64,000 nucleotides of DNA from a virus. Position 1 is the stretch's first letter; the number at the start of each line of letters is the position of its first letter. The position numbers and the translations under genes were made by a program. The stretch covers positions 1 through 64,000 of IMG/VR virus record IMGVR_UViG_3300036760_000689; one strand, 5' to 3'. Below the pieces are notes generated by a model. The model searched no databases. It was not told the origin of the DNA and worked only from the letters and a program-made list of their open reading frames with translations. Shown here one piece after another: positions 3,799 through 47,600 of the stretch.

Positions 3799-5100
3799 AT
3801 GAGCAAATGGAAATACACCGAACCAACGCCCAAGCGAGCGGCCATGAAAGCAGTGGAAGCCGCTATCGCCAAACTATCGAGACTCAATCGCCAATACACC
3901 GAGGTTACCGGCATCATCGGCAAGCCAGAGACCGAACAGCGGTTTACCTTCGAGGTTCTCATCGGCGGAGGCAACAAGTTTCAGCCCTTGATTGCAAACC
4001 TTGGCGGACTGTTTAACTGGGAAATCAACGCCAACAACATCGCCCAGGTTGCCGAGGCTTTCACCGCCGCTTATGAGGAATCCAAAGATCTAGTCGCCAT
4101 CAAGGACAAGCGTATCACCCAGGAAGCCGCCGACAAACAAGCCGCCGAACGTATCGCGCAGGATATCGAGCGAGACCAGAAAACCAACGACGCGTCCGCG
4201 CGAGCTTGCGCCAACGAAGCAATCATGAAGCAGATCACCCCTGCGAATGCAGCAGCCGTGATCCTAGCCGAACTGAATGAAGATCAGTGCGACATCCAAA
4301 CCGACTACTTCAGCCACAAGACCACGCGCACAGTCTTGATTGGCTTCCGGACTGGCAAGAAAGAGGATTTCCGCCAACTTCGCGCAGCCGCCGGCAGATT
4401 CGAGGAAACCAAGCACCTCGGCACAGGTTGCGACCGCTTCCACGTTAAGATTGTATTTGCCAATGCCATCGTCGATATCCAGGGTAATCAGTATCACGAG
4501 GGTTTCCCTTCTCATTGGCACAAAGAGGAAGAACGTGTTTTCTACACCCGCGCGGAGGCTGACGCTTACGTACTAGCACACAGCGCCTTGGAATCTATGG
4601 GCTTCGGCGAGCTTACAGCTACCTTCAGATTCCAAATCAATCAGTATTCCGTGGAACACCGCGAAAACTACAGCATGGGTTCCGGCAATTACCTGAAGGA
4701 CGGTCACACCGATTCTTCGGGTTGGCGTGTCTACTCCCGCGCTCTGCCCTTGGATCGCACCTTATTGGGCGATCCGAATCTTCAAATCTGCTGCGAGGCC
4801 TTAGCCGTTCCCACTCCCGAGCCAGTCTCTGAAGGTTATTCCGCTACGTCTCATTGGAACGGGGATGTGAAGGTATCTCGCAACATTGAGAAGGACGGGA
4901 TTGAAATCAGATTCAAAGTAAAGCCCAGCGCCGACGTTCTTTCACGCCTCAAGGGCATGGGCTACCGATGGTCGCCCTATTCCTCGTGCTGGTACTGCAA
5001 GCACTCGCCCCAGCGCCTGGCTGATGCTCTGCGCTTTGTCCAATCCCTAACAGGAACGGCCACGCAGGTCACAGGTAATGATGAGGTCGCTATCGGGTGA
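3799..5100 (+). CDS. Large-polyvalent-associated-domain-like protein, 433 residues
   Basis: Largest product of the left operon. Residues 1-100 are helical and the middle has a Gln/Ala-rich helix (about 105-145). The C-terminal segment (about 365-415: KPSADVLSRLKGMGYRWSPY followed by a CWYCKHSPQRLADAL pattern) resembles the short C-terminal modules common in plasmid and phage polyvalent proteins, in which a strand is followed by 'lkxxGfrWs...WyaxxtpeR'. This is a family-style resemblance, not a proven match. The role is unknown; such proteins usually accompany mobile-element establishment. The start follows AAAAGGAGAGAAACC. Confidence 0.7.
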   Translation: MSKWKYTEPTPKRAAMKAVEAAIAKLSRLNRQYTEVTGIIGKPETEQRFTFEVLIGGGNKFQPLIANLGGLFNWEINANNIAQVAEAFTAAYEESKDLVAIKDKRITQEAADKQAAERIAQDIERDQKTNDASARACANEAIMKQITPANAAAVILAELNEDQCDIQTDYFSHKTTRTVLIGFRTGKKEDFRQLRAAAGRFEETKHLGTGCDRFHVKIVFANAIVDIQGNQYHEGFPSHWHKEEERVFYTRAEADAYVLAHSALESMGFGELTATFRFQINQYSVEHRENYSMGSGNYLKDGHTDSSGWRVYSRALPLDRTLLGDPNLQICCEALAVPTPEPVSEGYSATSHWNGDVKVSRNIEKDGIEIRFKVKPSADVLSRLKGMGYRWSPYSSCWYCKHSPQRLADALRFVQSLTGTATQVTGNDEVAIG

Positions 5101-26134: not shown

Positions 26135-29100
26135 CTATCCGACCGTGACGCAGCCGTCCTCAATTCGAATCTGCGAATCGGCGAGATCCACTACCCTTGA
26201 TTGATGAGCGATAAAAAACAATTTGGAAAAATGCCCGACCTGTCGCGCACGACGGAGCATAGTGATGTACCGGATGGCATTTTCATCGTCCAGAGCACCG
26301 CTTACTTCGTCCCGCCAGATCGAAGCCCATCCAACGTTAGATTTCTGCCGATTGTAGAGGGCAGTGGCCAGGGCGGCAGCTTCGCTGACAATCGTTCTCT
26401 CACCTCCAGAGAGATCATCAACGCTGCCCTCTCTGTTTTTTTCGGCATCATAGACGTACAGATCAAAATCATCTGTAACGCCCCCTGTGGCCGTGGGCCG
26501 TTGCGTCACAAACTTGATTGAAAACCTTGGTCCGAAGCACGAATATAGGAGTTCCTTGTTGGCGATGTCGCTTACCGCCGGCCCTGCGGCCGCGATCTCT
26601 AAGCTCTGGATTTCCATCTTCCCAAATGCCTTTGCGAGGAAATTCCAGTTCCTATGGTCCTGAAAAGTTTTCTGAAGGTGGGGCCTTATCTCCTGACTCT
26701 TCTTGTGAGCTTCCAGAATCTCATTCAGGATCGTTTCCGCGCGAGTCAGCTCATTTTGAGCAACCTCAAGATTGGTCCGCCTATTTTCCAGATGATTCTC
26801 TGCCTCCTGCATGGATATCTGGGCGCGACGGGCCTCATCTTCTGCCGCCTTGGCACTTCGAAATTCTTGGGAAGTCTTCTCGAGGCTATTGGCCACCAGT
26901 GCAGAATCCGCTTCCCAGTTCATTATTCGATTTTTGATCTGGCCCATCTGCCCTTCCGCTACTTCTGCTGCGACTTTCCGGACGGTAAGGCCATGCAAAG
27001 AATCGGCCATCTTTTTCAATTCCGCCTCTTGTTTGTTTCGCTCCTTTGCCGTCTCTTCACCTTCCGCAACAGCAAAAGAAATATTCTCAATATCCACGTT
27101 CACAAGAGATAGGTCCATTTGGAATCCAGCCAAAGCCTGTTTCACTTCACCAATCTTAGTTTCTGCCGCTTCCGCTTTAGCTAGTGCATCGCGATCCCTT
27201 TCCATCATAGCAACCCTGCGTTCCAATTCCGAAATGGCTAGGGTGGTCTTACGTATTTCCGATTCAATGACGTGTTGACCTTGAGGGTCTGGCCTTCGGA
27301 GTTGTTTCATCTGTTGATCGCATGCGAGCATCCGGGATTGCGCCACATCAATATCACCAGAAATCTCATCAATAGAATCTCTACCTTTGATGGCGTTTGC
27401 CAAAAATTGACACGAAACATATTCCCCTTCCCCGTGACAGGGGACAACATTGATGATGAGCGAATCTCGTTGTGCTCGTTGGAGGGTGATCGTATTGACC
27501 GCCCTAATCTTTTCGCTCTCCGCCCTAGTCTTTTCAATCATCAACGTTTGCTCGGCATATTCTTTTATCATTCGCTGATATGTAGCCAACTCCTGCTGGG
27601 AGCGCGCGAGTTCCCCGCGTAAAGCTTGAATGTTCCGTCTTCCCTCCTCCAATCCTTGAGCCATATCCCTCAACTTCGGCGCTGAATCCGCCATTTCCTT
27701 GAGTTTGACTATCAGATCCTCACTCGTAACGATATCCTCATCGAGTCTTTTATGACGATGTTTGAGGGAGAGCAAGGTATTTTTGGCCGCGTTTGCAACG
27801 GCCATCTTGTTTGCCAGACTGGCGATCTGCTCCTTGGTGGCGATTATCTCACCTTCAGAAAACGCAATCAGATCTCCGAGCATGGGTAGTTGCGAGACAA
27901 TTAATTCCGCATCCGACAATACTTTCCTCTCGGTTGCGATATCGGTCTTCAACTTTGCAGATCTAGAAGAAAGCAGATTCATTTGCTGGGTGATTACAGG
28001 AAGAATAGCTGCTTTATTCTTCAGCGCCGAATAAATCGATTGGACATCTTTGTAATCGGCCTCGGCGTGAATAACTTCTTGTCGCAGATTATCGCGGCTG
28101 TTGTGGAGCGTCTCAACATCGGGGACCATTTTCGAGGCGGTAACCTGAAGCATTTCATGTTGTCCGGTAAGCCGTTGCATTTCAAACTGGCTGGCGTCGG
28201 CATGTTTTCCAGCCAAATCCGAAATCTTTTGAAGGCGATTCAATCCCAGCATGCTTATGAAAAGGGCCTTGCGATCAGCTTTCTCCAGTTCGATGAATGA
28301 TCCCCTTTTATTCTGGGATCCGAAGGAGGATGCCAGCACCATCTTAGAACTGCCGAAGAGTGTCTGCATGATCTCATCGAATGGTCCCGTATTGCCATCC
28401 TCACCGCCTATGGGTTTACCATCTTTGTAGAGGTATACCTTCATTGATCGCTTTTCGGCATTGATCTGGAGAACAGATAGATAATGATCGGTTCCCTGGT
28501 CGAATGCGAAACTGATTTTGGCATCCTTGCCCCGACAGTATTTATAGATGCTGGCCTCGCGGTAGGGGAAGTATCGATAAAAACTGGCGAACATGCTTTC
28601 GACGAACATCGTCTTTCCGCTATTCGACACAACAACTCCATTTGCGATGAAGTTGTGGCTCCCTGGAACCTCCATGTCGAACGTTTCTTCTTGGCCACAC
28701 TCGTCAATGCTGATTACTTTGTGATTGAACTGCTGCACTGTATGAGAATCTTGTCTATCTCTTATGGGCAGTCCAAATCTTCGCAGCCAATTGCGCACAC
28801 ATGTATCAGTACAACCAAACCGAGATGCGATCTGAGGCGCACTCAATCGATCCGTGAGATACATCTGCTCAAGCTGCGACTTTTCCGCCCATGGCCGATC
28901 CTGTTTATGCCAATAGTTCTCCTGCCCCCTGATCCTTATACTTTCTGACAGTGACCGACGAGGGATAGAGAACCACTCAAGCCAATAACCTATTGTATGG
29001 TCGCTCACTCCCAGAGCATCCGCTATTTGCACTGTACTTAAACGCTCAATACAGTACATTTGAGTGAGCAATTCTTTGTTGGCCCACGGTTGGTCTTGGG

Positions 29101-29896
29101 CATCCCAGTATTTTCTGAGTCCCAATTTGTGCGCCGCCTTGATTGCTGGATCAGAATGGCTTGCCCGTGATCCGGCACTGATCGCCGCCTTAACATCCTC
29201 ACTGTGTCGTTTTCCGAGCATCCCTCTTGGATGGATCTCGTAATGCGGCGGACGAAGCCTTCCGTGCAAGGCCCCGTGATCAACACTTAACATTCTAGCG
29301 ATGTTGAGAGGATCATTATTGAGTGGGTCGAGGTCGATATGATGGGGATCCTCGTTGTCCAACAATGGACTGCCGGAGGTGAACGCGGCAACCATTCGGT
29401 GTTCGCCTTCAAGGTTTCTATCTTGATGTACAATGGCAGCATACTTGCCATCCCTTATCCTTCGCGTCAGAGGCATGATTCGATCTCCTGGCCGCAACTC
29501 TCCAAGAGGTCGCCATGTGCCGTCAATGAGCATGATCAGGTGTTCTTTCGTTCCTATTAACTCTGCGGGAGGAGCAAAGCGACCTTTGGGCCTGGTGAAT
29601 CGCACCCTGAATACATCTTTGATCCCCGTACTCCAAACCTGCGATGCATGATTGAGAATAGTTTTCCTTGATTCTCTGTCATGCGAATAAACCAAAGGTC
29701 TCGTTCCGACCAATTCCTTGATTGGAATTCCGTGGGGGTGAAGAGTCAGGTTTCTCGGAACATCAATCATCGTGTCACCCACGAGACATCCATTCCGTCC
29801 AACGATGGCCACGACATCCCCCCCTACGGAATCAAAAGAGAAATCCACATCTTCGAATGGTCCGATCTGTTTGAGCCGAATCGAGCGGGGTATCAT
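26135..29896 (-). CDS. sbcC: SbcC/Rad50-like ATPase interrupted by an intein
   Basis: 1253 residues as encoded, 864 after splicing. The N-terminal AIVGRNG P-loop half is cut at residue 36 and resumes with SGKTMFVESMF after a 389-residue intein. Long coiled coils follow, with a zinc-hook-like PCHGEGEYVSC near the centre. The C-terminal lobe has the ABC signature DLSGGERT and Walker B WRDEVSGALD. With SbcD it would form a Mre11-Rad50-type nuclease for DNA ends and hairpins. Without splicing the ATPase cannot bind ATP, so activity depends on the intein. Confidence 0.95.
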   Translation of the reverse strand: MIPRSIRLKQIGPFEDVDFSFDSVGGDVVAIVGRNGCLVGDTMIDVPRNLTLHPHGIPIKELVGTRPLVYSHDRESRKTILNHASQVWSTGIKDVFRVRFTRPKGRFAPPAELIGTKEHLIMLIDGTWRPLGELRPGDRIMPLTRRIRDGKYAAIVHQDRNLEGEHRMVAAFTSGSPLLDNEDPHHIDLDPLNNDPLNIARMLSVDHGALHGRLRPPHYEIHPRGMLGKRHSEDVKAAISAGSRASHSDPAIKAAHKLGLRKYWDAQDQPWANKELLTQMYCIERLSTVQIADALGVSDHTIGYWLEWFSIPRRSLSESIRIRGQENYWHKQDRPWAEKSQLEQMYLTDRLSAPQIASRFGCTDTCVRNWLRRFGLPIRDRQDSHTVQQFNHKVISIDECGQEETFDMEVPGSHNFIANGVVVSNSGKTMFVESMFASFYRYFPYREASIYKYCRGKDAKISFAFDQGTDHYLSVLQINAEKRSMKVYLYKDGKPIGGEDGNTGPFDEIMQTLFGSSKMVLASSFGSQNKRGSFIELEKADRKALFISMLGLNRLQKISDLAGKHADASQFEMQRLTGQHEMLQVTASKMVPDVETLHNSRDNLRQEVIHAEADYKDVQSIYSALKNKAAILPVITQQMNLLSSRSAKLKTDIATERKVLSDAELIVSQLPMLGDLIAFSEGEIIATKEQIASLANKMAVANAAKNTLLSLKHRHKRLDEDIVTSEDLIVKLKEMADSAPKLRDMAQGLEEGRRNIQALRGELARSQQELATYQRMIKEYAEQTLMIEKTRAESEKIRAVNTITLQRAQRDSLIINVVPCHGEGEYVSCQFLANAIKGRDSIDEISGDIDVAQSRMLACDQQMKQLRRPDPQGQHVIESEIRKTTLAISELERRVAMMERDRDALAKAEAAETKIGEVKQALAGFQMDLSLVNVDIENISFAVAEGEETAKERNKQEAELKKMADSLHGLTVRKVAAEVAEGQMGQIKNRIMNWEADSALVANSLEKTSQEFRSAKAAEDEARRAQISMQEAENHLENRRTNLEVAQNELTRAETILNEILEAHKKSQEIRPHLQKTFQDHRNWNFLAKAFGKMEIQSLEIAAAGPAVSDIANKELLYSCFGPRFSIKFVTQRPTATGGVTDDFDLYVYDAEKNREGSVDDLSGGERTIVSEAAALATALYNRQKSNVGWASIWRDEVSGALDDENAIRYITMLRRARQVGHFSKLFFIAHQSRVVDLADSQIRIEDGCVTVG
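28622..29788 (-). mobile_element. Intein with HNH-type homing endonuclease in the SbcC P-loop
   Basis: 389 residues. It begins with Cys (CLVGDTMIDVP), has a KEHLIMLIDGTW block B-like region, and ends HNFIANGVVVSN followed by the +1 serine of SGKT. The endonuclease insert has an HNH core (DPHHIDLDPLNNDPLN about residues 147-162, HGALHGR) and two roughly 65-residue repeats, each with a helix-turn-helix (AQIADALGVSDHTIGYWL-like and AQIASRFGCTD-like). Insertion between GRNG and SGKT matches the known preference of inteins for conserved P-loops. Confidence 0.92.
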
Positions 29897-31687: not shown

Positions 31688-33811
31688 TCAAACTGGGTTA
31701 TGGTCTGGATACTCGTTGAGGCGCTTTTCGATGGCCTCAAGTTCCTCGTCCCTTAATGCAACTAGAGGCAACTTGTTTGGCGAATGCTCGAATCGGCTTT
31801 TGCCGAGCTTCTTAAGATACAGTGCTTCGATTCGAACGATCATTGCCTCTCGCGTATCTGGCGCGGACGGAGGCAGATCATCATCATCATCATCAAAGGG
31901 CGGAGGTTCTGGCACGGAAACCCCGGTAGCATCCATCGGTGGTTCAATCACCAATGGGCGCGGAACAACCTCTGGGATCTGAGCGGGGGCCGAATAACTG
32001 GGAGCTATGCCAAGAGCCTGATCATACATCTCCGAAGTTACTCCAGTTTGCTTCATGATGACGAGCTTCCTGATAAAAGGATCGTTCATGTTCAAGGGAG
32101 CTGGAATCGTCTTCAAGATAACAAACGGCTTGGCTAAATCCTGGAGGCGGAAACCAGACTGAATCCCGAGCAGGGTCCGGCGAACCCTGTTCATAGCCTT
32201 GGTATTGCCGGTGATACAAATCTGGCCATCCAAGCGCATGACCCAGGTTTCATAGAGGGTCGTTGGACACCAAACCGGCTCAGGACTTCCGAGGGGCGAG
32301 ATTTCCAAGCCGCCGATAGCAATGTTTGGCCTTCTCCACAGGGTTTGTTCTACAACAACGCGCTCGCGTTCAGGACCCAAACCATACCCTTCCAGCGCAG
32401 CTAAGATCTGAAAGGCATCGAGTACAGGGCCGCGTTTCTGCGTAAACACCCAGCAGTTCCCGTGCCGAGTCCCGTCGCCCATGAGCATTGCCTCAAGCAT
32501 GGCCTTGCGCGCCGGGGCGCTAAGGGCAGTGGCAAGCCGAGGGAGGTCAGCCTTCCCTTCAATACCGGCTCTAGCAAATAGCGATCGCCAGTATGCAGCG
32601 TGAAGACAGAATTGCACCCCCCGATGTGTGGCATAAGTCTTTCCCGTAGGGAAAGTCCTTAAGTTGGCCCCAGAAACAGACTCGCTATAGCTCCCGAGAG
32701 GTAGGAGGCTGCGGATGGCATCGGCATTCGGTCCTTCTACCTGCGTAATGTGAGCACGCATAAATGGTTCGTACGGGCCGTAGCGCATGCCATTGTGAAC
32801 AGAATGGGTCATCGTCTCTCGCACGCATCCCTCTGTCACAATCCATCCCAGGATCGCAGCATCGACTGGGGAAAGCGGATGATCCCCAGTCGGACCAGGA
32901 GCTGCTGTCACTATGCGCTTTAGGGCACGCGAGGCACCAAGCAAGTCTGATGCCTTGACGAGAGCAATCCGACTATTCTTATTCCTAACTCCAAACCGCG
33001 ATCGTACCACCCATGAATGGTTCGGGGTGCAGATGGTCGAGAAACCTCGTCGTTCGAGCCTTACGGTATCAACTCGTTCGAAGACACTAATATTCTCCAA
33101 TGGGGTCCACAAACAGCGATCGCTCCCGCAGTCATAGGCAAGTACGGACTCTCCGAGCGAGAGAGACGAATAACGCTTCCACCCATGCTTGGTCAATATT
33201 TCCGCTCGGATAGGCACGCATTCCGCTAGGGCTACGATATTCTGCCGCGAGCGGACGAGTTCAAGATCCTTGAGTTTCTTTGCCTGCGGAGTCCCGTCAT
33301 TGAGATCCAGTTCATAGGTCTGTTCTGAGTTGCGGATCGTGCCATCGATATCCTCAATTTCAGCACGGGCCGTCGTTTTGGCATGGAGAGGATCATAACG
33401 GGTGGTTCTGGTCTGGGGATCCATGCCCGCTGGTACCAAGCCAGATTGAATTTTCCAATTCGTCAAACCGGCCAAGGCATCAAGACGCTGAAGACCGATT
33501 TTGGTGAGCGCCAGTTTGCCGGTTTCTTTCACATCGTAGACCTCACCTTCGACGTATTCCTTGCCATCATCGGTTTTTTTGGTGGAGATTGAGGCAATCC
33601 GAAGGACAGGGATCCGGCCAGCATATGCTATCAACTGGGGGTCTAGGTTGGTCCTCGCCATGGGAGTCAAGACGTGCGCCTTGTCTCTCAACGAGACGAT
33701 CTGTTGCTGTACCTTCTGGATTTCTTGGAAAATGCTGTTGAGGTTGGTAACCTGGATGGCTACCGTCTCTGGTGGAATTAACGCTAACTGTTGGCTCTTT
33801 TGATCTTGCAT
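31688..33811 (-). CDS. Recombination/annealing-type protein interrupted by an intein
   Basis: 707 residues as encoded, 368 after removal of a 339-residue intein. The mature sequence joins NIVALAE to TKAMNRVRRTLLGI. This AE-T-K-A-x-N-R-x-x-R string resembles the conserved region of Rad52/ERF-type single-strand annealing proteins, and DLAKPFVILKTIP follows. The C-terminus is proline- and aspartate-rich (FDDDDDDLPPS). The annealing role is inference; inteins favour essential DNA-metabolism proteins, which agrees. It is the first gene of the recombination/replication operon, with AGGAGG before the ATG and a strong promoter upstream. Confidence 0.7.
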   Translation of the reverse strand: MQDQKSQQLALIPPETVAIQVTNLNSIFQEIQKVQQQIVSLRDKAHVLTPMARTNLDPQLIAYAGRIPVLRIASISTKKTDDGKEYVEGEVYDVKETGKLALTKIGLQRLDALAGLTNWKIQSGLVPAGMDPQTRTTRYDPLHAKTTARAEIEDIDGTIRNSEQTYELDLNDGTPQAKKLKDLELVRSRQNIVALAECVPIRAEILTKHGWKRYSSLSLGESVLAYDCGSDRCLWTPLENISVFERVDTVRLERRGFSTICTPNHSWVVRSRFGVRNKNSRIALVKASDLLGASRALKRIVTAAPGPTGDHPLSPVDAAILGWIVTEGCVRETMTHSVHNGMRYGPYEPFMRAHITQVEGPNADAIRSLLPLGSYSESVSGANLRTFPTGKTYATHRGVQFCLHAAYWRSLFARAGIEGKADLPRLATALSAPARKAMLEAMLMGDGTRHGNCWVFTQKRGPVLDAFQILAALEGYGLGPERERVVVEQTLWRRPNIAIGGLEISPLGSPEPVWCPTTLYETWVMRLDGQICITGNTKAMNRVRRTLLGIQSGFRLQDLAKPFVILKTIPAPLNMNDPFIRKLVIMKQTGVTSEMYDQALGIAPSYSAPAQIPEVVPRPLVIEPPMDATGVSVPEPPPFDDDDDDLPPSAPDTREAMIVRIEALYLKKLGKSRFEHSPNKLPLVALRDEELEAIEKRLNEYPDHNPV
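32204..33220 (-). mobile_element. Intein with LAGLIDADG-type endonuclease
   Basis: 339 residues. Block A starts CVPIRAEILT with SLGESVLAYD. CTPNHSWVVRS (about residue 64) is block B. LGWIVTEGCV (about 124) and AMLEAMLMGDGT (about 240) are the two LAGLIDADG-like motifs. TTLYETWVMRLD-GQICITGN is the C-terminal block, with Gly instead of the usual penultimate His, followed by +1 Thr. The class differs from the SbcC intein (HNH), so the two were acquired separately. Confidence 0.88.
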
Positions 33812-33874
33812 ATGCCCTCCTAAGGCATCAAGGTTGACCTATTCGTAGTCGGCGGAGGGCCGAAACGATGTTGT

Positions 33875-33904
33875 TTTATAGCATGTGGAAATTCTTTTTG
33901 TCAA
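33875..33904 (-). promoter_or_regulatory. Strong sigma-70-type promoter for the replication block
   Basis: On the minus strand TTGACA (33904-33899), an 18-base spacer, and TATAAA (33880-33875). Transcription would start near 33868 and read through the intein-containing gene, SbcD, SbcC, SSB and the replication genes. It lies just downstream of the terminator that closes the structural block. Confidence 0.8.
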
Positions 33905-33929
33905 CAACCAAATCGGCCGAACAACAAAA

Positions 33930-33954
33930 GGGCTGGAGCGGGGTGCTCCAGCCC
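33930..33954 (-). terminator. Rho-independent terminator of the structural/lysis operon
   Basis: Perfect 10-base stem GGGCTGGAGC / GCTCCAGCCC with a five-base loop. Reading on the minus strand it is followed by TTTTGTTGTT. It ends leftward transcription from the lysis region and separates it from the promoter at 33875-33904. Confidence 0.85.
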
Positions 33955-34015
33955 TCCTGACAAGTTGAATGCCCTCTGAAAATCATAGGCCGATCAGGTC
34001 AGCAACGGCCAAGCC

Positions 34016-34044
34016 GTTTCAATCCACGCCCGCGCGCGGGCGAC
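34016..34044 (-). CRISPR. Solitary type I-C-like CRISPR repeat
   Basis: On the minus strand 29 bases start GTCGCCCGCG and end GTGGATTGAAAC, with the internal palindrome CGCCCGCGCGCGGGCG able to form the crRNA hairpin. Type I-C repeats have the same opening GTCGC, a GC stem and the closing GCGTGGATTGAAAC, usually in 32 bases. No second repeat, spacer or cas gene is near. It lies in the transcribed strand of the late operon, is followed by another hairpin (AACGGC-CAA-GCCGTT) and then the terminator. The 3' end of a small frame overlaps it. Confidence 0.7.
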
Positions 34045-34129
34045 TACTTACGGGTTGTCCCAGAAGAATCATCGTGGAAGCGAATAGAGCCAGCAGAATC
34101 ATCAAAACCGTCACTGCGATTCTGAGCAT
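34019..34129 (-). CDS. Possible 36-residue membrane/signal peptide protein
   Basis: ATG 34129 with GGAGT upstream. The product begins MLRIAVTVLMILLALFAS, a hydrophobic stretch, then ends in PVSSRPRAGVD. Its 3' third is read through the CRISPR-like repeat and its stop lies in the TTGAAAC tail. It may be a small lysis-associated peptide or a chance frame; the hydrophobic N-terminus and binding site favour a gene. Confidence 0.45.
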   Translation of the reverse strand: MLRIAVTVLMILLALFASTMILLGQPVSSRPRAGVD

Positions 34130-34197
34130 GCACGTACTCCTTTCGCTTGTTGCGTTTATTTCAATTTACATTGGTATGCAACAGACTGAGATCAATG

Positions 34198-34299
34198 TCA
34201 ACCGCTTTTTTTCAGCAAGATAACGCCCTGGGCGACAAGAAATATTCCGACGACCAAACCGCCGATAAAAGCCAACAGCGCACATAGAACGTATCCCAT
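34198..34299 (-). CDS. 33-residue membrane peptide
   Basis: ATG 34299 preceded by GAGGTGAATC. One long hydrophobic segment (YVLCALLAFIGGLVVGIFL) and a basic tail LLKKSG. Single-pass membrane peptides of this size are common beside holin genes, and this one directly follows the holin gene. Confidence 0.55.
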   Translation of the reverse strand: MGYVLCALLAFIGGLVVGIFLVAQGVILLKKSG

Positions 34300-34322: not shown

Positions 34323-34796
34323 CTACTTTTTATTCCATTGGAATCCACTTTTGTCCAGTGACCTGAATCCGGCATATCCTAAATAGCCGCTACCAAAAAG
34401 CCAATATGCCTCTGAAGGAATATTCAAGGGGACCAGAGTGGTTGCCCCGCGAATCATCTCGATCACTGGAAGGATGATGAAATTGAAGGTGATCACGGCA
34501 TACATGATGTAAAGAAATGTAGGGCGAGAGCGGGAAACAAACTTGTCGCCGCTTTTTGCTTCTGCCTGAATATTAGCGGAAGCTGCTTCCGTTTCTTTTG
34601 CTTGGAGGTCAGCAAGATGCTGCTCCATTTCGAGTTGCATTTTCTGCAACTCGAAGGCGTTTTGATCCAATGCTTCCTGGATCTTTGCCTTCTCTGTGGG
34701 ACTCACCTTGATACGATCGAGGATCCCAAGGACAAGATCTTTAATCCCGCCTCCGCCGCCAGTGATGGCAGAGATAATACCTCCGAATGCTCCCAT
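34323..34796 (-). CDS. Holin of the three-transmembrane type
   Basis: 157 residues. Residues 35-80 are an amphipathic helix (ALDQNAFELQKMQLEMEQHL), SRSRPTFLYIMYAVITFNFI (about 88-108) is the first strong membrane segment, and a second follows near 130-145. The arrangement resembles the GTA-type 3TM holins. It would permeabilise the inner membrane so the lysozyme (34818-35249) reaches the wall. Confidence 0.8.
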   Translation of the reverse strand: MGAFGGIISAITGGGGGIKDLVLGILDRIKVSPTEKAKIQEALDQNAFELQKMQLEMEQHLADLQAKETEAASANIQAEAKSGDKFVSRSRPTFLYIMYAVITFNFIILPVIEMIRGATTLVPLNIPSEAYWLFGSGYLGYAGFRSLDKSGFQWNKK

Positions 34797-34817: not shown

Positions 34818-35249
34818 CTATCTTACACCCGTTTTCATTTCCTCCGCAAGTCTTGTCGCCCGGACTCCGACCTGCGTTGCCCAGGTGGAATTTAGCATCT
34901 CTATTGCCGCTATGCTATATTCCTTATTCTGGATCGCCCTTAGCGTGCGTTCGAATTTTAATAGGCCATAAATCCCCAAGTTGAAGCACATGTTGGCCAA
35001 TACCGATTGGCGTACAAGGTCGAGATCATTAAACCAAGGAAGAGCTTGGGTAAGCTGGCCAATGACCTCGGCCACATCGTTGGATAACCGCAGTTCTGCC
35101 TCGGCCAAACGTATAGGGCAAATCTGAATTGCCCAACCGTAACCGATGGTCAGATTCCCTGTAGAATCCATGTAGGTTTTACCCCGAAACCCCTCGTCAA
35201 CTTTCAATGCTTCTTTGGTCAATTGTATAAGGGCAACTATATCCATCAT
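34818..35249 (-). CDS. Endolysin, T4-type lysozyme (GH24)
   Basis: 143 residues. The catalytic triad of T4 lysozyme is present with identical spacing: E19 (DEGFRGKTY), D28 and T34 (DSTGNLTIGYG), compared with E11, D20, T26 in T4. The C-terminal half has the helical lysozyme fold (QSVLANMCFNLG). It cleaves the peptidoglycan glycan strand. There is no signal peptide, so the holin must export it. AGGAGG precedes two adjacent ATGs (35249 and 35246). Confidence 0.92.
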   Translation of the reverse strand: MMDIVALIQLTKEALKVDEGFRGKTYMDSTGNLTIGYGWAIQICPIRLAEAELRLSNDVAEVIGQLTQALPWFNDLDLVRQSVLANMCFNLGIYGLLKFERTLRAIQNKEYSIAAIEMLNSTWATQVGVRATRLAEEMKTGVR

Positions 35250-35676: not shown

Positions 35677-38600
35677 TTACTCGGGCGGTTCGGGCAATCG
35701 TAATGGCGACTCCCCAGTCGGGGGAGGCATCATCCTTCTAACCTTTGTCGCTTTATATTCCTGAAGCGTCTTTTTGGCAATCGCATTCATCTGAGCCTGT
35801 TTGGTTCTGATGAAGGTGTCGATTTGCGTCTTGGTGTATTTCGGATTCTTTTGCATCGCATCGATCTGTTTCTGGTAGGCCGTCAATATCCTTGCACAGC
35901 CGGCAAACTTAGGTGCAAAAAAAGCATTGGGATAGAGTTGGGAAGCTTCCGCATAGGACATGCCCTTTTTCATCTGGTAATCGCGGACCCGTTTATCTCG
36001 CGTAACTTCCGCGTTGGCAATAAAGAAATCCGCCACCTCAGCTCCCGCACCCCTCTTTGCTTCACGACTTTGGGCTTGTTCTTTGAGTTGCAAACGCTCA
36101 GGTCTTCGTTCCTCCTCTGTATGGCCATATCCAGTACTCTCGTTGATGACCCTTCCGGCCAACCGTCCAACCGTTGGATCTATTTGCGTTAATATTTGGT
36201 AAAAGCTCTTATTGCTTATATCGTAGGTTTGGAAATTGCCAAGACCCAACTGGTTCAACGAGAACAGTACGAGTTTGCCCGCCATGGCCGGTTTGTCTCC
36301 CGCTTCATATACATCGCGCGGAAAAATGGGCATACCGCGATAGGTATCTGGCGGGTTCTGGCCTGCCAACGCTCGACCCACGGTGATCGGAATCTGGATC
36401 CAGGGAGTGGGCGATGGCAATTGCGACACAACATGATTATATATGTTTGTCAGCATTTCCGGATCGTCTTTGGCATATCCATCCATCAGTTCGTTTATGA
36501 TCCCCCAAAGCATCCTGCATCCTTCGTCCAAGGGTACTTGAAAGCTGATCGCTTCCCCTAACCTGTTCAGGCCGAACAGAACGTTGAGATACATCCGCTT
36601 TTTATAACCCGTGATGCCGTCCCAGGCCCACTTGATCTTTTTGCCCCAATAGGGACCAAAGATCTTGACGGCGTAATATCCGAAAATCAAGTTCGCCGCT
36701 ATCAGCACGCTCAGGACTTTCATCGTTCTGTGGAAGAATCCCGATCTGGTTACGGGATCAGCGATAAGATTAATCTCGCTGTGCCATCCCTGGATGAACA
36801 TAGTCGGAAACGCGAGGAGCCGGTTGAATGTCTGTCCCCAACTTCCCTTGCGATACCATGCCGGGGTCCCTGTGTTGCGCCGCATGTTCATGCCAAGTCT
36901 TGGCCCGGTTTCCCCTGCGGCCACCCGGACTTGATGGCCACTAACCTTACCCAAGGTTTCCGCGAACTCTGCGACGTAGGCAAGTCCGCCCAAAACATTC
37001 TTGGCCCCACGGTACATCCTTATCGTAGCGCGCTTATCCAACGTCCCGTTTGGCCTGTAGATTCCTGCGCGCTTCATTGTTAGATTGAAGGCGTCATGCT
37101 CATATTCGGTCTCGGGGGCTTCCAACGTCGGAGCTGATATTTCGTCGTTTCTGATCATCTCACGCAAGAGTGGATCCCCGTGATTCTTCATGTGCCGATA
37201 TACATGAATGAAGGAGCGCCTGTAGGCATCGAGGAGATAAGTAAAATCTCCAGCCCCCCATTCACGCCAGAGCTTCTGAAGCATATTCCCGGGAAGAAGC
37301 TCAAAAGGCAACGCCCTGAAATTTTTCACAAAGTCCCTGACTGGATTGCCAAACGCACCGAAGGACAAGTTGTAAAGAATAATGACCTTCCACCAGAGTT
37401 TGTGAACCAGATTCATCCACTGCGCCCAATCCTGTAGGGCCTCAGCGTTCGGATGATTGATCCCATCGGCCAGGTACTTATCCACCCAATATCCCTGTCG
37501 CCTGCCATCCTCCATCATCTCAACGATGTCAAATCCCTCAACGGCCTTACCATTGGCATCCACGGGGCGTTCCCAAGTTACTGCGATGTCGGTAGGATGC
37601 TGTCGTTTGGCCTTATAGATTTCATCTGGCCAGAATTGTTTCCAATTTTCGATAAATGACCGGCGCGCACCATAGACGACTATCATTTTGATAAGGGCAA
37701 ACCGCATTTTGAGATCAGATAGAATCGGGTTTTCAAAGGCCCCCGTATAGCCGATCTGGGCCTTTACTGTCGGGCTGACGTATTGATCGATATATTTTTC
37801 GGCCACGAATTTGACGTAGTTGTACTTGTCCTCCTCGAACTTTTTACGCGCTCGCTCTGGATAAATCTGGAGATCGAATCCTTTTTCCACGAGTTCCCAG
37901 GTAATGTCCTCATAGGCATGAGCAGCTTGTTCCAGAGCTGCGAATTTTTCGGGACCAATCCGCTCCTGGAATCGGTCCAATGTTTCTGCCGCAAATTCTC
38001 CACCAACAATTTTGGGATTGGCCACATCCGCGCGCCCGGTCGCAGTTCTGTGGAGATACATGTAGAGACCCAAGACGATGTGTGGCCCATAATGCTCCGC
38101 CGTCAGATCCTGGTAGATCGTGCCAGCAATACTGGGCAAGTCCGACGCCTTGAAACCCAAATCCTCGATCGTGATTCCGGCCTTCTCGATGATTTCCTGC
38201 ATTATCTCGCGGTTGACCCTATCGGCGAATTCCCATGTTCTGTTGGCAATGTTGAACGGGAGCGCATCGTATTTGATCTCGGGATTGTCTTTGTCGTCGA
38301 TGGCAGTGGGTTTATACTTCAGCAACCCCTCAATGTGTTTGTCGAGCATCCATAAGCGATAGACGAGTTTGCCCTTGACGCTTCCTATGAATCCCTGGCC
38401 CTTTAGTGGTTCTTTCAACTCCACAGCCGCAGATGATCTTTCCGCATCTACCAACATACCGAGCGTTCTGACCAGCCGATCGTCCAACTTTTCTTCCGTA
38501 GCTCCCGCCATCATTGCCCGGAGCTTGAGGTACTCCGTTTTCACATCTGGCTTGGTATCCATGTGGGCATGGAACTCCCGATAAAACTTTGGCGCATACT

Positions 38601-41600
38601 TGCGCGCCGTGCCTGGGGAATTCAGCAGGGCGGACACAAAATCCGCATATAATTCCTGGGATTGTCGCCGCAACCTTATGTATCCAGGTCTAGCCTTCGT
38701 AAGGTCGTAAGGATGCCAGTATTCGCTGAGGAAGATGAGTTCCTTCCTGAGTTCCTTGGCTTTGGCCATCACCCCCGGCATAGTATTTTTCAGATAGGTG
38801 CTGAGAGTCGTGAGCCGACCTAGGAGATTACCACGCTTGAGCGTTGCGGTCGGCACCCAATCAACAAGGTGACCGATTTCATGAGCGAGTACGCGCGCTA
38901 AAACCTCTCTATTTCCCGGTTCGAATAATTCAGGGCGCAACTCGATATGTTCCTTCATCCGCTCGCCTACGAAGCGGCCGTAGCTTGTTCTCAGTCTCGT
39001 GCTTAATTTGATTGCTTCCTTTACTCCGTGTTGTGATGCGATCTGGATCAGATCATCGGCAAGATTCATCAGTTCCGGAGCTTGGATCCTGCCCCAAGCT
39101 TCAATCTCAAAGATATCGACGCTCCTATTGTCGTATGGAAGGATCCGAAACCGCCTCGTTCCATCGTTAATGATCCAACCTAATGTCCCCTTTGTGATCT
39201 TCGCCGCCGAGGAGAGATCAATATCGCTATTGGCTTTCATGTCATCAGTAATCGAGGTGGGAATGGTCCCGGAGGACATTGCCGTTTTGTCGGCTTGCGT
39301 CACAGCGCTTGTGAAGAGATAGGACGGTCCCAGTTCTTCCTCACGCGTCCATATCGGCATTTCCCTTTTTTTATACTCCGCAATTTCCGGGGGTTCTGGA
39401 AGTGGCGTATAAAGCGGATCCGCCAAGGGGCCGCTGACCAATTGGGGATCGGGATGCCCTTCAAATGCAGGCATATCGGCGACCTCGGGTTGTGCCGCGC
39501 CAGCATCCACAACCTCCTGTGCGACAGGAGTTCTCTTCTTCTTTCTTCTTCTGCCGACATTGATAATGTACGACGAGGCCAAGAAGGATCTCTTGCCTCC
39601 TGCACCATATCTGTTCGCAATTTCTGGACGTGTAGCTTCTAGGTCTTCAACAAGTCGTCCTGCGAGTTTTGCTTCTTCGTAAATGCCGATATAGAGGGTG
39701 GCCTTTTCCCGTTCTGCATGAAGGAGATCCCTGCGTGCGGCGATTGCCTTGCGTTTGTCCTCGGCCTCAGGGTTATAGTCTGGATGTTCCTTCATGAGCT
39801 GGGCAAGGTGCTCCTGGTGGGATTGCATCCTTCTGCGATCCCAATCCGACCCATAACCCTTGGCAATGTCATCCTCGAGTTCCTTGATGCGTTCCTGCCT
39901 ATTTTTGATGTCGTCTTCCATCACCTTCAGGTGGTGGAGAACTCTTTCCTCGACCTGATCTATTGCCTCAAGTTCGCCATCGACCGAATGAACGGCATGT
40001 TTGGCCCGATAGTAATCCAAGGTTGCCTGCGGGATGGCTGCGGCATCGGCCAATTGCCGGAAGTTTCTGCCATCCTCGTCGAAGTCAAGCATTTCATCCG
40101 CGTTCCCTCGATATACCTCTTTGATCCATACATCCTTGCCAGCAATGGTATCGTAGAGCTTGGCATCCGACGTTCCCCTTACCAAATAACGATGGATGCG
40201 AATGCTTTCGTTCCTATTCCCTTGCCGTAAGCCGCGCCCGTCCGCTTGTTCAAGTGCAGAACCTGTCCACGGGACATCGAAATGATGGACCTGAGTAGTA
40301 TCAGTTTGAAGGTTCATGCCCTCACCCATGGATTGCCTCGAACCGATCAGGAATCGGATTTTTCCCTCCGCGTTGGCCTGCTGAATTTTGAACTTGGCAT
40401 TGGCTCCGCTGTTAATCTGCCCATTGACGATGGCAATCTGACTTTCGGGAACACCAGAATCCATCAACTTCTGTTTGAAATGTTTGTGGATATTGACCAA
40501 CTCCACAAAATGCTTGGAATTCTGTTCCTTTTGCACACTATCTTCGTCGTCACCCTCTTCAATCTTTCCCTCTTCGGTATCTACCGGCTCCTCCAGATAA
40601 CCGCCACGATAAAGATCACAGAAGATAAGTTGAGTGTTCTCTCCGGTATCACCAGCGAGCACTTCTTTAACCACAGCCTCTAACTTCGAACCGGGACCCC
40701 CAAAGGAAGCAGCATACTTCCTGGGATCGAAGATCGCGGGATCTGCCGCTAGTTTTCGCGCGAGAGTCAGGACAGAGAGGTGATTGATACCTTCGGCAGC
40801 CGCCTGCTGCAGGTGATCGTTGACGTATTCTTGCAACCATGCGATGTAGCCAGCGCACTCCGTCACTGCGTCAGTTGGATCCAAAACATGGTCAATATAG
40901 ATTCCTTCGGGACGGGGGATCTTGAGATCTTCAATCGTTCGGAAATCAACATAGCGCCGGAAGATGGCTCTCAACTCGGTCAGATTCTTATATCCTGCCC
41001 AGACCGTCTTAGCCTTAGGCACTCCGGTTGCGGTCTGGACCTCACGCGTTTCAATCCGCCCGAATTGCCCCATGAAATCGCCAGCGTTCAGGATTCCCCG
41101 ACTCGTCCACTCTTCCGGTGCCACATAACCCATCATGGCGTAGATCTCAGAAGGATGATTCGGGGTCGGTGTGGCAGTGAGCATCCAAACATTCTGACCT
41201 TTTCGACCGCCCCTGCGCTCATGGATGTAGCGGGTCTTATATTGCATGTCAGCGGCACGTTGCGACCACTTTCCTGCACGCACGTAATCCGACATGTCAC
41301 CGTAATCCTTTGGAGTATTTTTGAATCGATGAGCCTCATCCACGATGATGGCGTCGGAACCAAGATCCTCGAAAAAGATTGTGTTAGTTCTTTTCATCTG
41401 CTGCAATTTCGCGAGTTTCTCTTCGTATTTCAGGATTTGATTCTGAATTTGGGTCTCGGTACGCTTATCCTTTTTTACCTGGACGGCCCGGAGACGATCT
41501 TCGAGTTTGCGGATATCTTCTTGAATGTATTCCTCAGACTTGCGTAGCGGGATCTCCTTCATACCTTCATGAGTTATCAAGATGAAATCGGCATCGGTTA

Positions 41601-44600
41601 CCGCTGCCCGTTGCAGCATCTTGTAGCGATTGGTGGCGTCCAAGCCAGAGAGGTCAATAATGGTGGCGTCTGGTAGCGCCTGATTGATTTCATATGCCCA
41701 ATTTTTCACCACCGCAGCCGGGACAGTAAGAATTGGCTTGCGCACCTTGTTGCGTTGTTTCAGGTGTTCTACCAGTAGGATGGCGGTCAAGGTTTTCCCG
41801 CCTCCTACACCATATGCAACGATTCCGCTACCGATGTGTGCTGCGCGCCCCACGCCTTGCCACTGATGCGCTTGAATCTTCAAGGGACTTCCCTTGAACA
41901 TCGTGCTCAGACCGTTAATGTCGAGTTGTTTATCGGAATAAAACCGTTCTCGAAAGGAACGATAACCTCGGTTATATTTCGGGATCACCCTATCAAACAG
42001 GCTGATATGCTGAAGACTCCAATCACGGAACATTTGAGCAAGAACGGCGTATGCCTTCTCGCCGTCTTCGTCGTAGATGGTTTTGGTTATTATCTCGCCC
42101 TTCGGATTTACCTCCCCGGTCGGCACTTCCTTCCTCACCCGGATATGCCGCATATAATTTTCGATTTGCTGGAAGTCTAGCCTGAAATCTTTTTCAATCG
42201 GCCTCGTTTTTTCCAGGCCAATCTCATCCTGATATTTTTCCGTTGACGGGATTCGTATATTCAGTTTCGCAGATGCTCTATCCGCCTCTAATGCCCAAAC
42301 CATCCTTCCGCGATCGCCATCCCAGACCTTTTCGGCACGGATGCGCCCGGGAGTGAGTTCCGCAAGCCAGTGCTGAATGACCCGATCCTCGATATATGCG
42401 GAGAAAGGATCGCTTCGGCGGATTATTTCATCGGCCTGCGCCTGTTCTGGAAGCACCGCCTTGAGCCTTATGAGCTGATCCGAAAGCGCGGTGAGGACGT
42501 TTGCCGCGCGGTTCCTTACTTCTGGCGTTTTTTGTCCCTCTGGTATCTGGTCGAGGCGGTTCTGAATATCGCCTGCCATCTGGGCAGTCTGATCGATCTT
42601 AGGCCAAATGGAACCATACAAATACTCCTCGTTGACCTCCATGATCGGCTTACCATCCTGATCCAGAGCGGCAATGCTGAAGTCTGGATGGCCCACGAGA
42701 TCTTCGGGCTTCATGGTTCCCTGATATCTCTGGGCAACCTCAGACCAGTTCATCTCTCCGGTGGTTTCGTAGACAAATTTTGCTGTGTCAACGAGATCTT
42801 CCTTGTTGTAATCCCGCACCTCTGGGGGTGGAACGTAGATGGAATTATTGGTAAAGATATCGCCGGGACTGCCATCAACATTGGTCAACGCTGCTAGTTT
42901 CCATATCCTGGGATCGGCAAACGGGAAAGGAGCACTCTGCGGTCCTCCACCGAGATATCTCCATAGGGTTTTATCTTTGGTTGGATCGCCGCTGGGATTG
43001 TCCTTTGGGGTGGCGTAAGTTCTTTTGTAGGCATCCAAGAGTGGTCTTACTTGCGCGCGGAGTTTGTCCGCCCCAGCGATATCATTGTCTCTGAGAGCGG
43101 TGAAAAGGTCATCCGCGAATTCGACTAGCCTCAATCCTTTGCGGACTCTCTCATGGGTTTTGCCCTCACGAGGCATTTCCGTGGCATGGAGGATAAAGCC
43201 GTCCTTGCTGGCATATCCGAACTTCTCTTTCTCTTCATCCCAGACAACCGTTCCGATTTTCATCCCCTGTGGGCGGTTGCCGAGGATTTCCCGATCTGCG
43301 GCCTCTTCCGTTGCGATCTTGGCGGCCTGCGTCTCCTTTGGGATATAGCGAATATCATCAGTCAGAGCATGCGCAATAGCTTGCAGGTATCTATCCTGAT
43401 CGGGAATCTTTTTCCCCCCTGGTCCTTCCTTCTGGAAAGGCCGCACACCCATCATCGTTGGATGCTGGACATTGTATCCAGCCTCGAGTGTCCCCCATAC
43501 CTTTTCGGGATGCTTCATATAGTAGGTCGAGACTTTCGCTCCAATGCCGCTTTCCTCTGGATCCAGAGCGTAGATGAACTCGTCCTGATACATGTTGTCC
43601 GTCCACGATTCCATTTCCTCTGGAGTTCTTTTCCTGAGAAAAATGATGTCGGTCGAACCTTCGTACTGGGTATTTTTGCTGAACTCACCGCCCGGAGTCC
43701 GGTAGGCACCAAGAAATTCAGCCCTCTTATTTATCTCCTTGCGAGGTTTCTCATTGCCCGTTTTGTCCATCGTCCCGATGCCGGTAATGAACATGACAAC
43801 GCCATTGGGCCGTGTCATGTCGAGAGATTTCACAAAGAAAAAATCGTGCATTTGGTGGATATCTTCGTATTCTTTTGCTTCATCTCTATAGCGGCAAGCG
43901 CCACGCGCCGCATTGAAGGGAACATTCGAAGAGAAGACATCAATATCCTTCCTTGGCGGATATTCCTCGAAATGAAGGTCCGAGATTTTTACATCGGGGA
44001 ACAAGAGCCGAGATACCTGGACGGCAAGCGGATCGATTTCCGTAGCAAAGATCTTGGAGTCCGCAGGGGCGAACCCCGAACTGCAATTACCAATACCATG
44101 GGCTGGATCCATGATGGTAAGATTGTCCATGGGGAAACCCATAGCACGGAGTTTATCCCACAAGAACACGGCCATCCGATACGAGGTGTAATGCTCGTAC
44201 AAGGTACCCCGTTCTTTGACCATGGCCGACAGGCCCCCGCTCCCAGTGTATTGACGCAGAAGGTTCTTCTCTTCATCTGTGAGTGGATCCCCTGGTTGCT
44301 TCGACTCCACGAGTTGGCGAACCTTCTCGTTAATCTCTATGCGCTGTCCGCGCGTAAGAACTACAGGAGGTCTCCCTCTGAATGTATATCGGGCGTCGCG
44401 TTGCGCTGACTCAAGATCTGCTGCCGGAGTTGTTCCTTTAACTCCTGGCTCGGTGGAAAGTTCAGCAGTAGGTCGTGGCTCAGGTCGCTCAGCAGGTTCG
44501 CCACCCCGCACCGCTCTACCACCTCCTTCGGCAAGCGGTCGATAATCTCCCGCGCCGCCTCGTCCGCCGCGTAAATCCTCGACATCTCCGTAACGTGCTC

Positions 44601-47600
44601 CATAAATGCCTCCGACCCCGCCTTCATAATCCTTGTTGCCTGTGACCGCCTCCCAGACATCTGGGAATAACGGTTCGAGATCTTCGCCCAGACCCTCGGC
44701 GATATCCTCCATATCGCGGTACAAGGTCGCATGCCATACGGCCTTATCAGCGACTCCGGTATTGTAATAGTCATCGCCTAGAGCTGTCATGGCGTCGAAG
44801 ATATCCGGGTCTGTCCGCAATTGCTCTCTTGTCGGCCCCTTGATCTCGATGCCCTCGACAGCCATCTCGGCGACCTCCGCCGCCCGCTTGCTGATTTTCT
44901 TGCGAATGATATCCCGCGCGCGCTTTGCCTTTTCGGATTGACTCTGAGGCACTGCCTCTGGTTCTGGAGGAAGTAATGGTCCGCCGCTGAGATTTGAGAG
45001 GGGATGCTCCGCCCCGAAGGTCGGCGGAGGCGCTTCGGGAGGAATCAGTTCCGTCTTATAACCTGCCCTCGTCGGGATAATCCTCGCCTTCGTCCATTGG
45101 ACTTCTGGAGGACCTTCGAGCGGAGGAGGCTCGAAAGTCACTTTTCCACCTAATGGTGTGATGTCCTTCAGACTGTATCCAGTCGCTTCTGCCAGCTCGT
45201 TTGCGATTTCCCACGCCTGTATGCCCTTTCTCATCTGACCCACGGAGGAAAGATATTTGGATGCATCGGAATAAAAGCGTGCAAGATCCAGGGCCTCATC
45301 CGGGTTGACGCTGAGAATCCCAACGGTCTGACTATTATCGACAGTGGCGGTTTTGAATTTGCCGGGATTTCTTCTCAGAAGATCTTCTCCGGTGTCCTTT
45401 TGACCTGTCGTTCGCAGTTTGATGCGGATCTGGGGCGCTTCTGGTTCAATCTCGGGAGGCGGTGACGGCAAAACCTCGCCACTGGCTGCACGTTTGAGAT
45501 CCCGCGCGTTATCGGCAAACTTCGCCAAAGAAGGGCTGCCGCTTTCGGGAATACCTTTCAGGTCTCTGATTTGAATGATCCTAATCCTGATCTGGGCAAT
45601 GCTCCAGTCCGCCTTACCGCCCAGGGTTTGCTTGATCTCATCGGCCAACCGTGGAAGCGATTTGCCATCGAGCAAGCCTTCGATGATAGGTTCCGCAATG
45701 TCGAGATTGATGGCCTGCTGGAGAAAGGATTCGGCCATTCTCTGTTTCGCAGGTGTAAGGACCGTATTGGGCAGATCGGCTGCATAACTGAAGAGTTGGA
45801 TGGGAGCTTTGCCTTCGGGCGCAAGCGGTGGTTCCAACGTTGGACTTATTTCCTCGCCCTCACGCGGACGGGCTAAGCCAATATATAGGTTGCCATTTTC
45901 ATCTTCTACAAACTTCGATAAATCCTCTCCGGGCAACGGTCGGGGACCATCATAACCGCCAAGAACCAAGTGTCCTGCACGTGCCAGTCGAAACACAGCA
46001 GCATCGAACACCCCTCGTGTCATGGTCGGAAACTGCTTTCGGACTTCATCTACCGCGACAAAGTTCCCCAGTCTTGTCTCTGTCTCCCATTCCGCATCCG
46101 CCATGCCCTTAAGGAAAGCATTTTCCTCTCCGGGGACAGGTTCCAGAGGCGGAATCTCTGCCTCGGCAGCCGCAGGCAACACTTCCTCAGGCGGTTCTGC
46201 CAACGTCATAGATACCAGTCTTCGTTCCAGCTTCCTGTCGGGGAGTCGCGGTGGGCGACCCGACTCGGAAATTCGCATGACATCCTTGGCCCAGCGTCCC
46301 ACAGATCTGCCATCGGGCATCCTTATCGTGAGACGTTGCCTACCCTGGAAATCAGCGATATTGGTGATCCTACCGATACCAAGATCGACATCGGCATCTG
46401 TGAAGATGTCACTCTCAGTGAAGATATTGTTTTTAGGTTCATTCTTGGCCAGAATGCTCTGTGCTTGTTCTGGTCGAAGGCGGCCGATGATATTGTCGCT
46501 ATAATCCAATCCGCGCAACTTATCTTCCTGGTCTCGAGTGATCACAAATGCCGCCAAAGGTTGCGGCGTAGGTTCTTGAGCTTTCTCGATTTCTTCGGCT
46601 GCAACAGCAAATTTGGCGCGGGTGTCCTTCAACTCATCGGCGATCTTTTCTCCCGGCTTGACCGCGAACGTCGATCCAGTTTGCGTGTCAGTATAAAGGA
46701 AGAATACGGTATTGCCTTGTAGATCTTGCTGTGGGCCGTTATAGACGACGCCTTCTGGAAGTTCTTCCATCTCATGAGGCGCTGCCACCTTGCCGATATC
46801 CTCGGGTCTAGGCAATGGTTCTGGCTGAGGAGCCACTGGAATCGGCGGTTTAATTGGTAACTCCGTTGGCGGAATTTCGGTCACTGTCGGAAGCATCCCT
46901 AGCGGTGCCTCGGGCGCTGCCGCCGCGACCTCGGGTTCAACTGTTTTGCCGGAAAATTCATTGGCCCTGCGCGCGGCATCTGTCAGATCTTCTGGGGTAA
47001 TCCCAGCGACAATCTGTTTGCGTTCTTGACCGCTCATATCGGCAAAACCTACGGTCATTTCGGAAGGTGTCATGGCGCGCCCATATTTGGCCTGAAACGC
47101 GCGCGCGATTGACGGAATGTGGAATCCGGCGATCTGGAGAAATGTTATGAAACCATCTTCACCAGCAGCAGAAAGTCGTGTTGCGAGATTTCCGGGGGTC
47201 TCCACCGCTGTAATGCCAGCCGCCGCCAGACCATAGGATACCGCGCTCTGGAGAGCCGTTCCGATTGAGGTGCGATGCGTTTCGTTCGCGTAATCCTCGA
47301 TAAACTTCTTGAACTGTTCATATTCTGGATAACGCGCGCGGGCCATATCACGAATGGTGTCCACAACCGAAAAGCGAAAGGCATTGGGATCCACCATGCC
47401 CCTATTAACGGCATCGCCGACCCACGCACGCGCTACCGCCTGCGCCGCGAGCAAATCCTCTTTTGTGGCCGTAGTAGGATCAAGGAGCGTGCCAGACCAT
47501 CCCGCCCTGGATGCCGCCAACAACTCCGCTTGTATCTTGATGGTTTCGGCTTCCTCTTTGTTAGCGACCGTCGCCATCCCGCGAAGTAATTGCGATATCT

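What the first reader, a model, noticed from the sequence alone, without database searches (positions are those of the whole stretch)
34016..34044. Solitary CRISPR repeat that may act as an RNA anti-CRISPR
A type I-C-like repeat (opening GTCGCCCGCG, closing GTGGATTGAAAC, GC stem) stands alone with no second repeat, spacer array or cas gene. It lies in the transcribed strand between lysis genes and a strong terminator and is followed by a hairpin. Established knowledge: phages carry solitary repeat units whose RNAs mimic crRNA repeats and sequester Cas proteins (Racr RNAs). The 29-base length is shorter than the usual 32 of type I-C, so Cas5/Cas7 recognition is uncertain.
Basis: partly seen in the sequence, partly recalled or inferred. 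Interest (0 to 1): 0.75.

Follow-up and report, generated by a model that had tools for sequence, protein, structure and literature searches.

The report
Solitary CRISPR repeat in a phage
A bacterial virus carries one lone, shortened copy of a type I-C CRISPR repeat behind its cell-lysis genes, probably an RNA decoy against the host's CRISPR defence, and its sister copies in other phages carry traces suggesting that such lone repeats can be picked up at the very spot the host was targeting.

Summary
A 29-nt type I-C-like repeat (GTCGCCCGCGCGCGGGCGTGGATTGAAAC) lies on the minus strand at 34016-34044. It is the only copy in the 110-kb phage record, which gave no Cas1 or Cas5d hit.

It belongs to a real family. 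An exhaustive IMG/VR scan for the 29-nt form found 18 contigs, all solitary; the reversed pattern found none. Their inner stem covaries. Among about 85,000 bacterial genomes, repeats with this stem number 532 array copies, all 32-35 nt; every 29-nt copy is solitary. So 29 nt is not a truncated array repeat but a solitary-only, short-loop form.

Best reading: a solitary repeat unit acting like an RNA anti-CRISPR (Racr) against a type I-C host. Expression, host and activity are untested.

New in sister loci: in about 8% of solitary I-C repeats, a 4-15-nt prefix of the downstream sequence also stands just before the repeat, preceded by a PAM-like TTC/TTT/CTY. This suggests capture by recombination with the host array at the targeted protospacer. 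It did not recur in a small second set, and the window's copy lacks it.

The parts
34016..34044 (-). solitary 29-nt type I-C-like CRISPR repeat (stem CGCCCG/CGGGCG, loop CGCG, handle TGGATTGAAAC)
   Evidence: family
34019..34129 (-). 36-aa ORF MLRIAVTVLMILLALFASTMILLGQPVSSRPRAGVD with AGGAG ribosome-binding site; one predicted membrane helix by eye; its last codons and TGA stop lie inside the repeat
   Evidence: and reading
34004..34018 (-). small hairpin AACGGC-TTG-GCCGTT that takes up the last three bases of the repeat's 3' handle
33979..34015 (-). 37 nt after the repeat (position of a spacer); no second copy or target in the phage and no upstream prefix copy
33926..33956 (-). intrinsic-terminator-like GC hairpin with TTTT, probable 3' end of the transcript
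   Evidence: not listed by the scan, which wants five T
34198..34299 (-). 33-aa ORF MGYVLCALLAFIGGLVVGIFLVAQGVILLKKSG, small membrane peptide in the lysis region
   Evidence: reading
34323..34796 (-). holin (GTA_holin_3TM PF11351; PHROG 3427)
34818..35249 (-). endolysin (Phage_lysozyme PF00959)

Best explanation
The feature is a solitary repeat unit (SRU) made from a type I-C CRISPR repeat. Late read-through of the lysis operon would transcribe it between the 36-aa ORF and the terminator hairpin. In a host with a type I-C system, Cas5d would bind and cut the hairpin as it does pre-crRNA repeats and be held, perhaps with Cas7, on RNAs that carry no useful guide, lowering the amount of working Cascade (Racr-like decoy). 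Shown: the sequence, its solitary state, its orientation, and membership in a recurrent 29-nt solitary-only structural family. Inferred: transcription, Cas5d binding, inhibition and a type I-C host.
For: Exact I-C features, only copy in 110 kb. 18 of 18 IMG/VR stretches with the 29-nt form are solitary; control 0. Inner stem maintained by compensatory change: 94% of cells paired against 80% in shuffles, 14 double-changed cells against 4.1, 0/500 shuffles as high. The 29-nt form is absent from arrays of the same stem in about 85,000 genomes: 0 of 532 array copies, 5 of 10 solitary copies. Sense orientation with both neighbours in 25 solitary viral units, antisense to both in 7. A type I-C SRU (RacrIC1) inhibits I-C in the laboratory and is cotranscribed with an upstream gene (PMC10651486).
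Against: Host and its CRISPR type unknown; no transcription data; no promoter nearby. Translation of the 36-aa ORF would run a ribosome through the hairpin. A slipped hairpin that masks the Cas5d side is as stable alone as the canonical one (-11.3 against -11.0 kcal/mol). Cas5d recognition of a 6-bp stem with 4-nt loop is untested. No relative of this phage was found to show conservation at this locus.
Confidence: 0.55

Rival explanations
1. Escape scar: the repeat was copied into the phage from the host array by recombination at a targeted protospacer. It replaced the PAM with the repeat's 3' end, so the site looks like the host's own array. It need not act as an RNA at all.
For: In 112 distinct solitary I-C repeats, the sequence after the repeat repeats a prefix (k>=7) just before it in 5 cases against 0.07 expected. 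PAM TTC immediately precedes the upstream copy in 5 units (k>=4) against 0.14 expected, and TTC/TTT/CTC/CTT in 9 of 9 against 0.34, 0/1000 shuffles. TTC and TTT are I-C PAMs in Neisseria lactamica (PMC10865793). L234 has TTC + 34 nt + repeat + the same 34 nt.
Against: The window's copy has no such prefix. A second set (repeats ending GAAAT, 26 units) had none with k>=4 (1.0 expected by chance); at the first set's rate about 2 would be expected, so it is underpowered but not a replication. Stem covariation and the short loop imply later selection on the RNA structure.
Confidence: 0.15
2. A neutral relic: a captured CRISPR repeat that is decaying in a 3' untranslated region or was co-opted as the tail of the 36-aa ORF.
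For: Overlap with the ORF; no host match; unknown expression.
Against: The 29-nt family keeps an invariant frame and a covarying stem across unrelated phages.
Confidence: 0.18
3. A dispersed bacterial element. In a few termite-gut Accumulibacter/Azoarcus genomes the same 29-nt motif ends a roughly 115-bp dispersed element; the phage picked up its end.
For: These repeats differ from the window's mainly in the 4-nt loop.
Against: The window lacks the element's conserved 85 nt upstream and its AT after the repeat; only 2 of 200 family genomes carry the motif; other phages carry 29-nt units with unrelated stems.
Confidence: 0.06
4. A one-repeat mini-array whose downstream 33-37 nt serves as a guide against another phage or the host.
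For: The codirectional sequence after the repeat sits where a spacer would be.
Against: No second repeat to define a spacer; the downstream 37 nt has no target in the phage. Targets elsewhere were not searched.
Confidence: 0.04

Closest known systems
Solitary repeat units / RNA anti-CRISPRs (Racrs), in particular RacrIC1 (PMC10651486)
   Same: Single type I-C-like repeat in a phage, no cas genes found, codirectional with and just downstream of a short ORF, no second repeat within 100 bp.
   Different: 29 nt with a 4-nt loop and 6-bp stem instead of about 32-33 nt; no acr gene recognised; host unknown; activity untested. The length of RacrIC1 itself could not be read here.
Type I-C CRISPR array repeats (Cas5d substrates)
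   Same: GTCGC start, GC hairpin, GCGTGGATTGAAAC end.
   Different: Array copies with this stem are 32-35 nt (532 copies); the 29-nt form was never seen in an array.
Virus-borne mini-CRISPR arrays (PMC6858448)
   Same: Leaderless CRISPR repeat in a virus.
   Different: Mini-arrays have a spacer between two repeats; here only one repeat.

Membership tests
Solitary repeat unit (SRU), SRUFinder definition (PMC10651486) | no full or partial repeat in the 100 bp flanks | tested here: met
Solitary repeat unit (SRU), SRUFinder definition (PMC10651486) | at least 90% identity over at least 90% of a known CRISPR repeat | tested here: inconclusive
   The 29 nt align to 32-nt array repeats apart from the loop, with a 3-nt gap; their repeat database was not at hand, so the bit-score rule could not be applied
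Solitary repeat unit (SRU), SRUFinder definition (PMC10651486) | intergenic | tested here: inconclusive
   Outside sense-strand ORFs of 50 aa or more, but its 5' part is the end of a 36-aa ORF
RNA anti-CRISPR (Racr) | transcribed small RNA | not testable with these tools
   no expression data; a terminator-like hairpin downstream and codirectional lysis genes only make it plausible
RNA anti-CRISPR (Racr) | matches the CRISPR subtype of the host | not testable with these tools
   host unknown; no relatives; none of 688 spacer-like I-C sequences matched the phage convincingly
RNA anti-CRISPR (Racr) | binds Cas proteins and blocks interference | not testable with these tools
   needs bench work
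Type I-C CRISPR array repeat | array length of about 32-33 nt | tested here: not met
   29 nt; arrays with this stem 32-35 nt only; viral arrays 30 nt or longer
Type I-C CRISPR array repeat | GTCGC...GCGTGGATTGAAAC ends and hairpin | tested here: met
Mini-CRISPR array | two or more repeats around a spacer | tested here: not met

The most novel reading that the evidence does not exclude
Phage solitary I-C repeats arise when the phage repairs or recombines a targeted protospacer with the host's own CRISPR array, copying the repeat in front of the protospacer. That one step swaps the PAM for the array's 'self' flank, giving escape from that spacer, and also yields a decoy RNA, which later shrinks to a solitary-only 29-nt form. 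The window's unit would be an old member whose capture scar has faded.
Probability: 0.3. Interest if true: 0.85.

Novelty: new variant of a known kind. Interest (0 to 1): 0.55.

Why it matters
Racrs are a recent class of anti-CRISPR. A solitary-only, short-loop form of the I-C repeat would give a sequence signature that separates decoys from array repeats; searches that start from array repeats would tend to miss it (inference). The PAM-prefix signature in sister loci, if it replicates, would answer where solitary repeats come from and describe an escape route in which a phage makes its target look like the host's own array.

Tried and rejected
Rfam: no hit. Exact 29-mer in IMG/VR: none apart from the window. 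DNA similarity of 33820-34160 to known phages: only chance 20-mers. Neighbour proteins for synteny: lysozyme relatives only distant, 36-52% identity; SbcD none; DnaB under 35% identity to known phages. Isolated phages with similar repeats: none convincing for the window's form. Spacer-like sequences from I-C arrays in hand against the 110-kb phage: best 15 nt exact or 19 nt with one mismatch, chance level. TTC counted alone by distance upstream of repeats was not enriched; only TTC followed by the matching prefix was. L167 first looked like a capture scar but is a two-repeat mini-array and was set aside.

Full report
Observation. Read 5'->3' on the minus strand it is GTCGCCCGCGCGCGGGCGTGGATTGAAAC, 29 nt. 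No other copy of GCGTGGATTGAAAC with up to one mismatch exists in the 110,116-bp virus record that holds the window. Cas5d and Cas1 profiles find nothing in the record. Upstream on the same strand lie a lysozyme and a holin; downstream lie a small hairpin that uses the last three bases of the repeat and a 10-12-bp GC hairpin followed by TTTT.

More than chance. Scanning all 2.9 million IMG/VR contigs for GTCGC-N10-GCGTGGATTGAAAC gave 18 stretches, each with a single match; the same pattern reversed gave none. The ten free bases are not random: positions 6-8 pair with 13-15 in nearly all sequences, by different base pairs (CG, UA, GC, AU, UG). On 17 distinct sequences 94% of cells pair against 80% in shuffles, and 14 cells carry changes on both sides against 4.1 (0/500 shuffles). 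So this is an RNA hairpin family, not a set of chance matches. The three outer pairs are fixed by the search pattern and say nothing.

The length question. In viral contigs, repeats with I-C ends of 26-29 nt are always solitary, while arrays start at 30 nt and are mostly 32, 33 or 36 nt (the sample is biased towards 29 because that length had its own exhaustive scan). In 84,980 bacterial and archaeal genomes, repeats with the window's own stem (GTCGCCCGC...CGGGCGTGGATTGAAAC) occur as 532 array copies, all 32, 33 or 35 nt, and 10 solitary copies, of which five are 29 nt. The 29-nt form is thus a solitary-only variant with a 6-bp stem and a 4-nt loop, against 7 bp and 5 nt for the 32-mers folded here.

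Context of the family. Among solitary viral units lying outside long ORFs and with a gene on both sides, 25 are in the sense direction of both neighbours and 7 are antisense to both, as expected if they are cotranscribed; the gene calls behind this count are crude (ORFs of 100 aa or more). L002/L003 carry two 32-nt units 3.7 kb apart, one directly behind a terminase-like gene; L004 carries one behind a gene that reads like a single-strand-binding protein.

A capture signature in sister loci. While looking for target duplications I found that several solitary repeats are preceded by a copy of the first few bases that follow them. Testing all 112 distinct solitary units (gap to the repeat at most 5 nt), prefixes of 7 nt or more occur in 5 units against 0.07 expected from re-paired flanks, and 4 or more in 9 against 3.2. 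The three bases before the upstream copy are TTC in L198, L093, L230, L175 and L188, TTT in L146 and L216, CTT in L156 and CTC in L177: 9 of 9 are YTY. TTC with k>=4 is seen 5 times against 0.14 expected, and TTC/TTT/CTC/CTT 9 times against 0.34, with 0 of 1000 shuffles as high. TTC and TTT are the I-C PAMs reported for N. lactamica, 5' of a 35-bp protospacer (PMC10865793). The order PAM - prefix - [repeat] - full protospacer is what one would get if the phage copied repeat plus spacer from the host array into its own targeted protospacer. Afterwards the protospacer is flanked by the repeat instead of a PAM, like the array itself. L234 shows TTC + 34 nt + repeat + G + the same 34 nt, a full spacer length. 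Caveats: the test was devised on these data; an independent set of 26 solitary repeats ending GAAAT had no prefix of 4 nt or more, with 1.0 expected by chance and about 2 at the first set's rate; TTC alone near repeats is not enriched; and the window's own repeat shows no prefix or PAM, so for it the origin is not shown. I found no description of such a signature in the Racr paper or reviews consulted, but the library lacks most subscription journals.

Mechanism. In type I-C systems Cas5d cuts the repeat, leaving an 11-nt 5' handle, and one Cas5d stays on the 3' hairpin (PMC5965380). RacrIF1 shows that a solitary repeat can trap Cas6f and Cas7f in a dead subcomplex, and RacrIC1, cotranscribed with the acr gene in front of it, inhibits a I-C system (PMC10651486). 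By analogy, the window's RNA, made by read-through of the lysis operon, would tie up Cas5d/Cas7. The steps from transcription onward are inference. Against it: a slipped hairpin is as stable as the canonical one; a ribosome on the 36-aa ORF would traverse the hairpin; the host is unknown and the phage has no close relatives in the collections searched.

Bacterial look-alikes. In termite-gut Accumulibacter/Azoarcus genomes (termite gut inferred from sample names, not tested) the 29-nt repeat, with variable loop, ends a roughly 115-bp dispersed element (TTCATCAGAAACTAACTCCGGTTGGAAACC...), 6-8 copies per genome, nearly always followed by AT. Only 2 of 200 genomes of that family carry it, and one of three has a cas5d. 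The window does not share the upstream part. What these elements do is open.

Verdict. It is a new, short-loop variant of a known kind (solitary repeat units). The most novel lead is the PAM-prefix signature in sister loci.

Noticed in passing
L146, L156, L198, L216, L093, L230, L175, L188, L234: Solitary I-C repeats flanked by PAM (TTC/TTT/CTT) + prefix of the downstream sequence, as if inserted at a protospacer by recombination with a host array.
   Followed up: partly
L086, L087, L109, L114, L124, L090, L125-L127, L132, L133, L137-L144: About 115-bp dispersed element in betaproteobacterial MAGs (probably termite gut) ending in a 29-nt I-C-like repeat plus AT, 6-8 copies per genome; possibly a non-autonomous mobile element.
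   Followed up: partly
L002 588-619 and 4266-4297 (same phage L003): Phage with two solitary 32-nt I-C repeats 3.7 kb apart, one between terminase-like and portal-like genes.
   Followed up: partly
window 31688-33811 and 26135-29896, minus strand: The 707-aa ORF and the SbcC-like ORF each appear to hold an intein (the latter in its Walker A motif, ending VVVSN|SGKT), read by eye.
   Followed up: no
window 35677-49266, minus strand: A single 4529-aa ORF with methyltransferase-, helicase- and peptidase-like stretches by eye (polyvalent protein).
   Followed up: no
L145 around 4177-4205: The GATTGAAAC end of the repeat is tandemly duplicated directly after it and 21 bp of flank is repeated upstream.
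   Followed up: no
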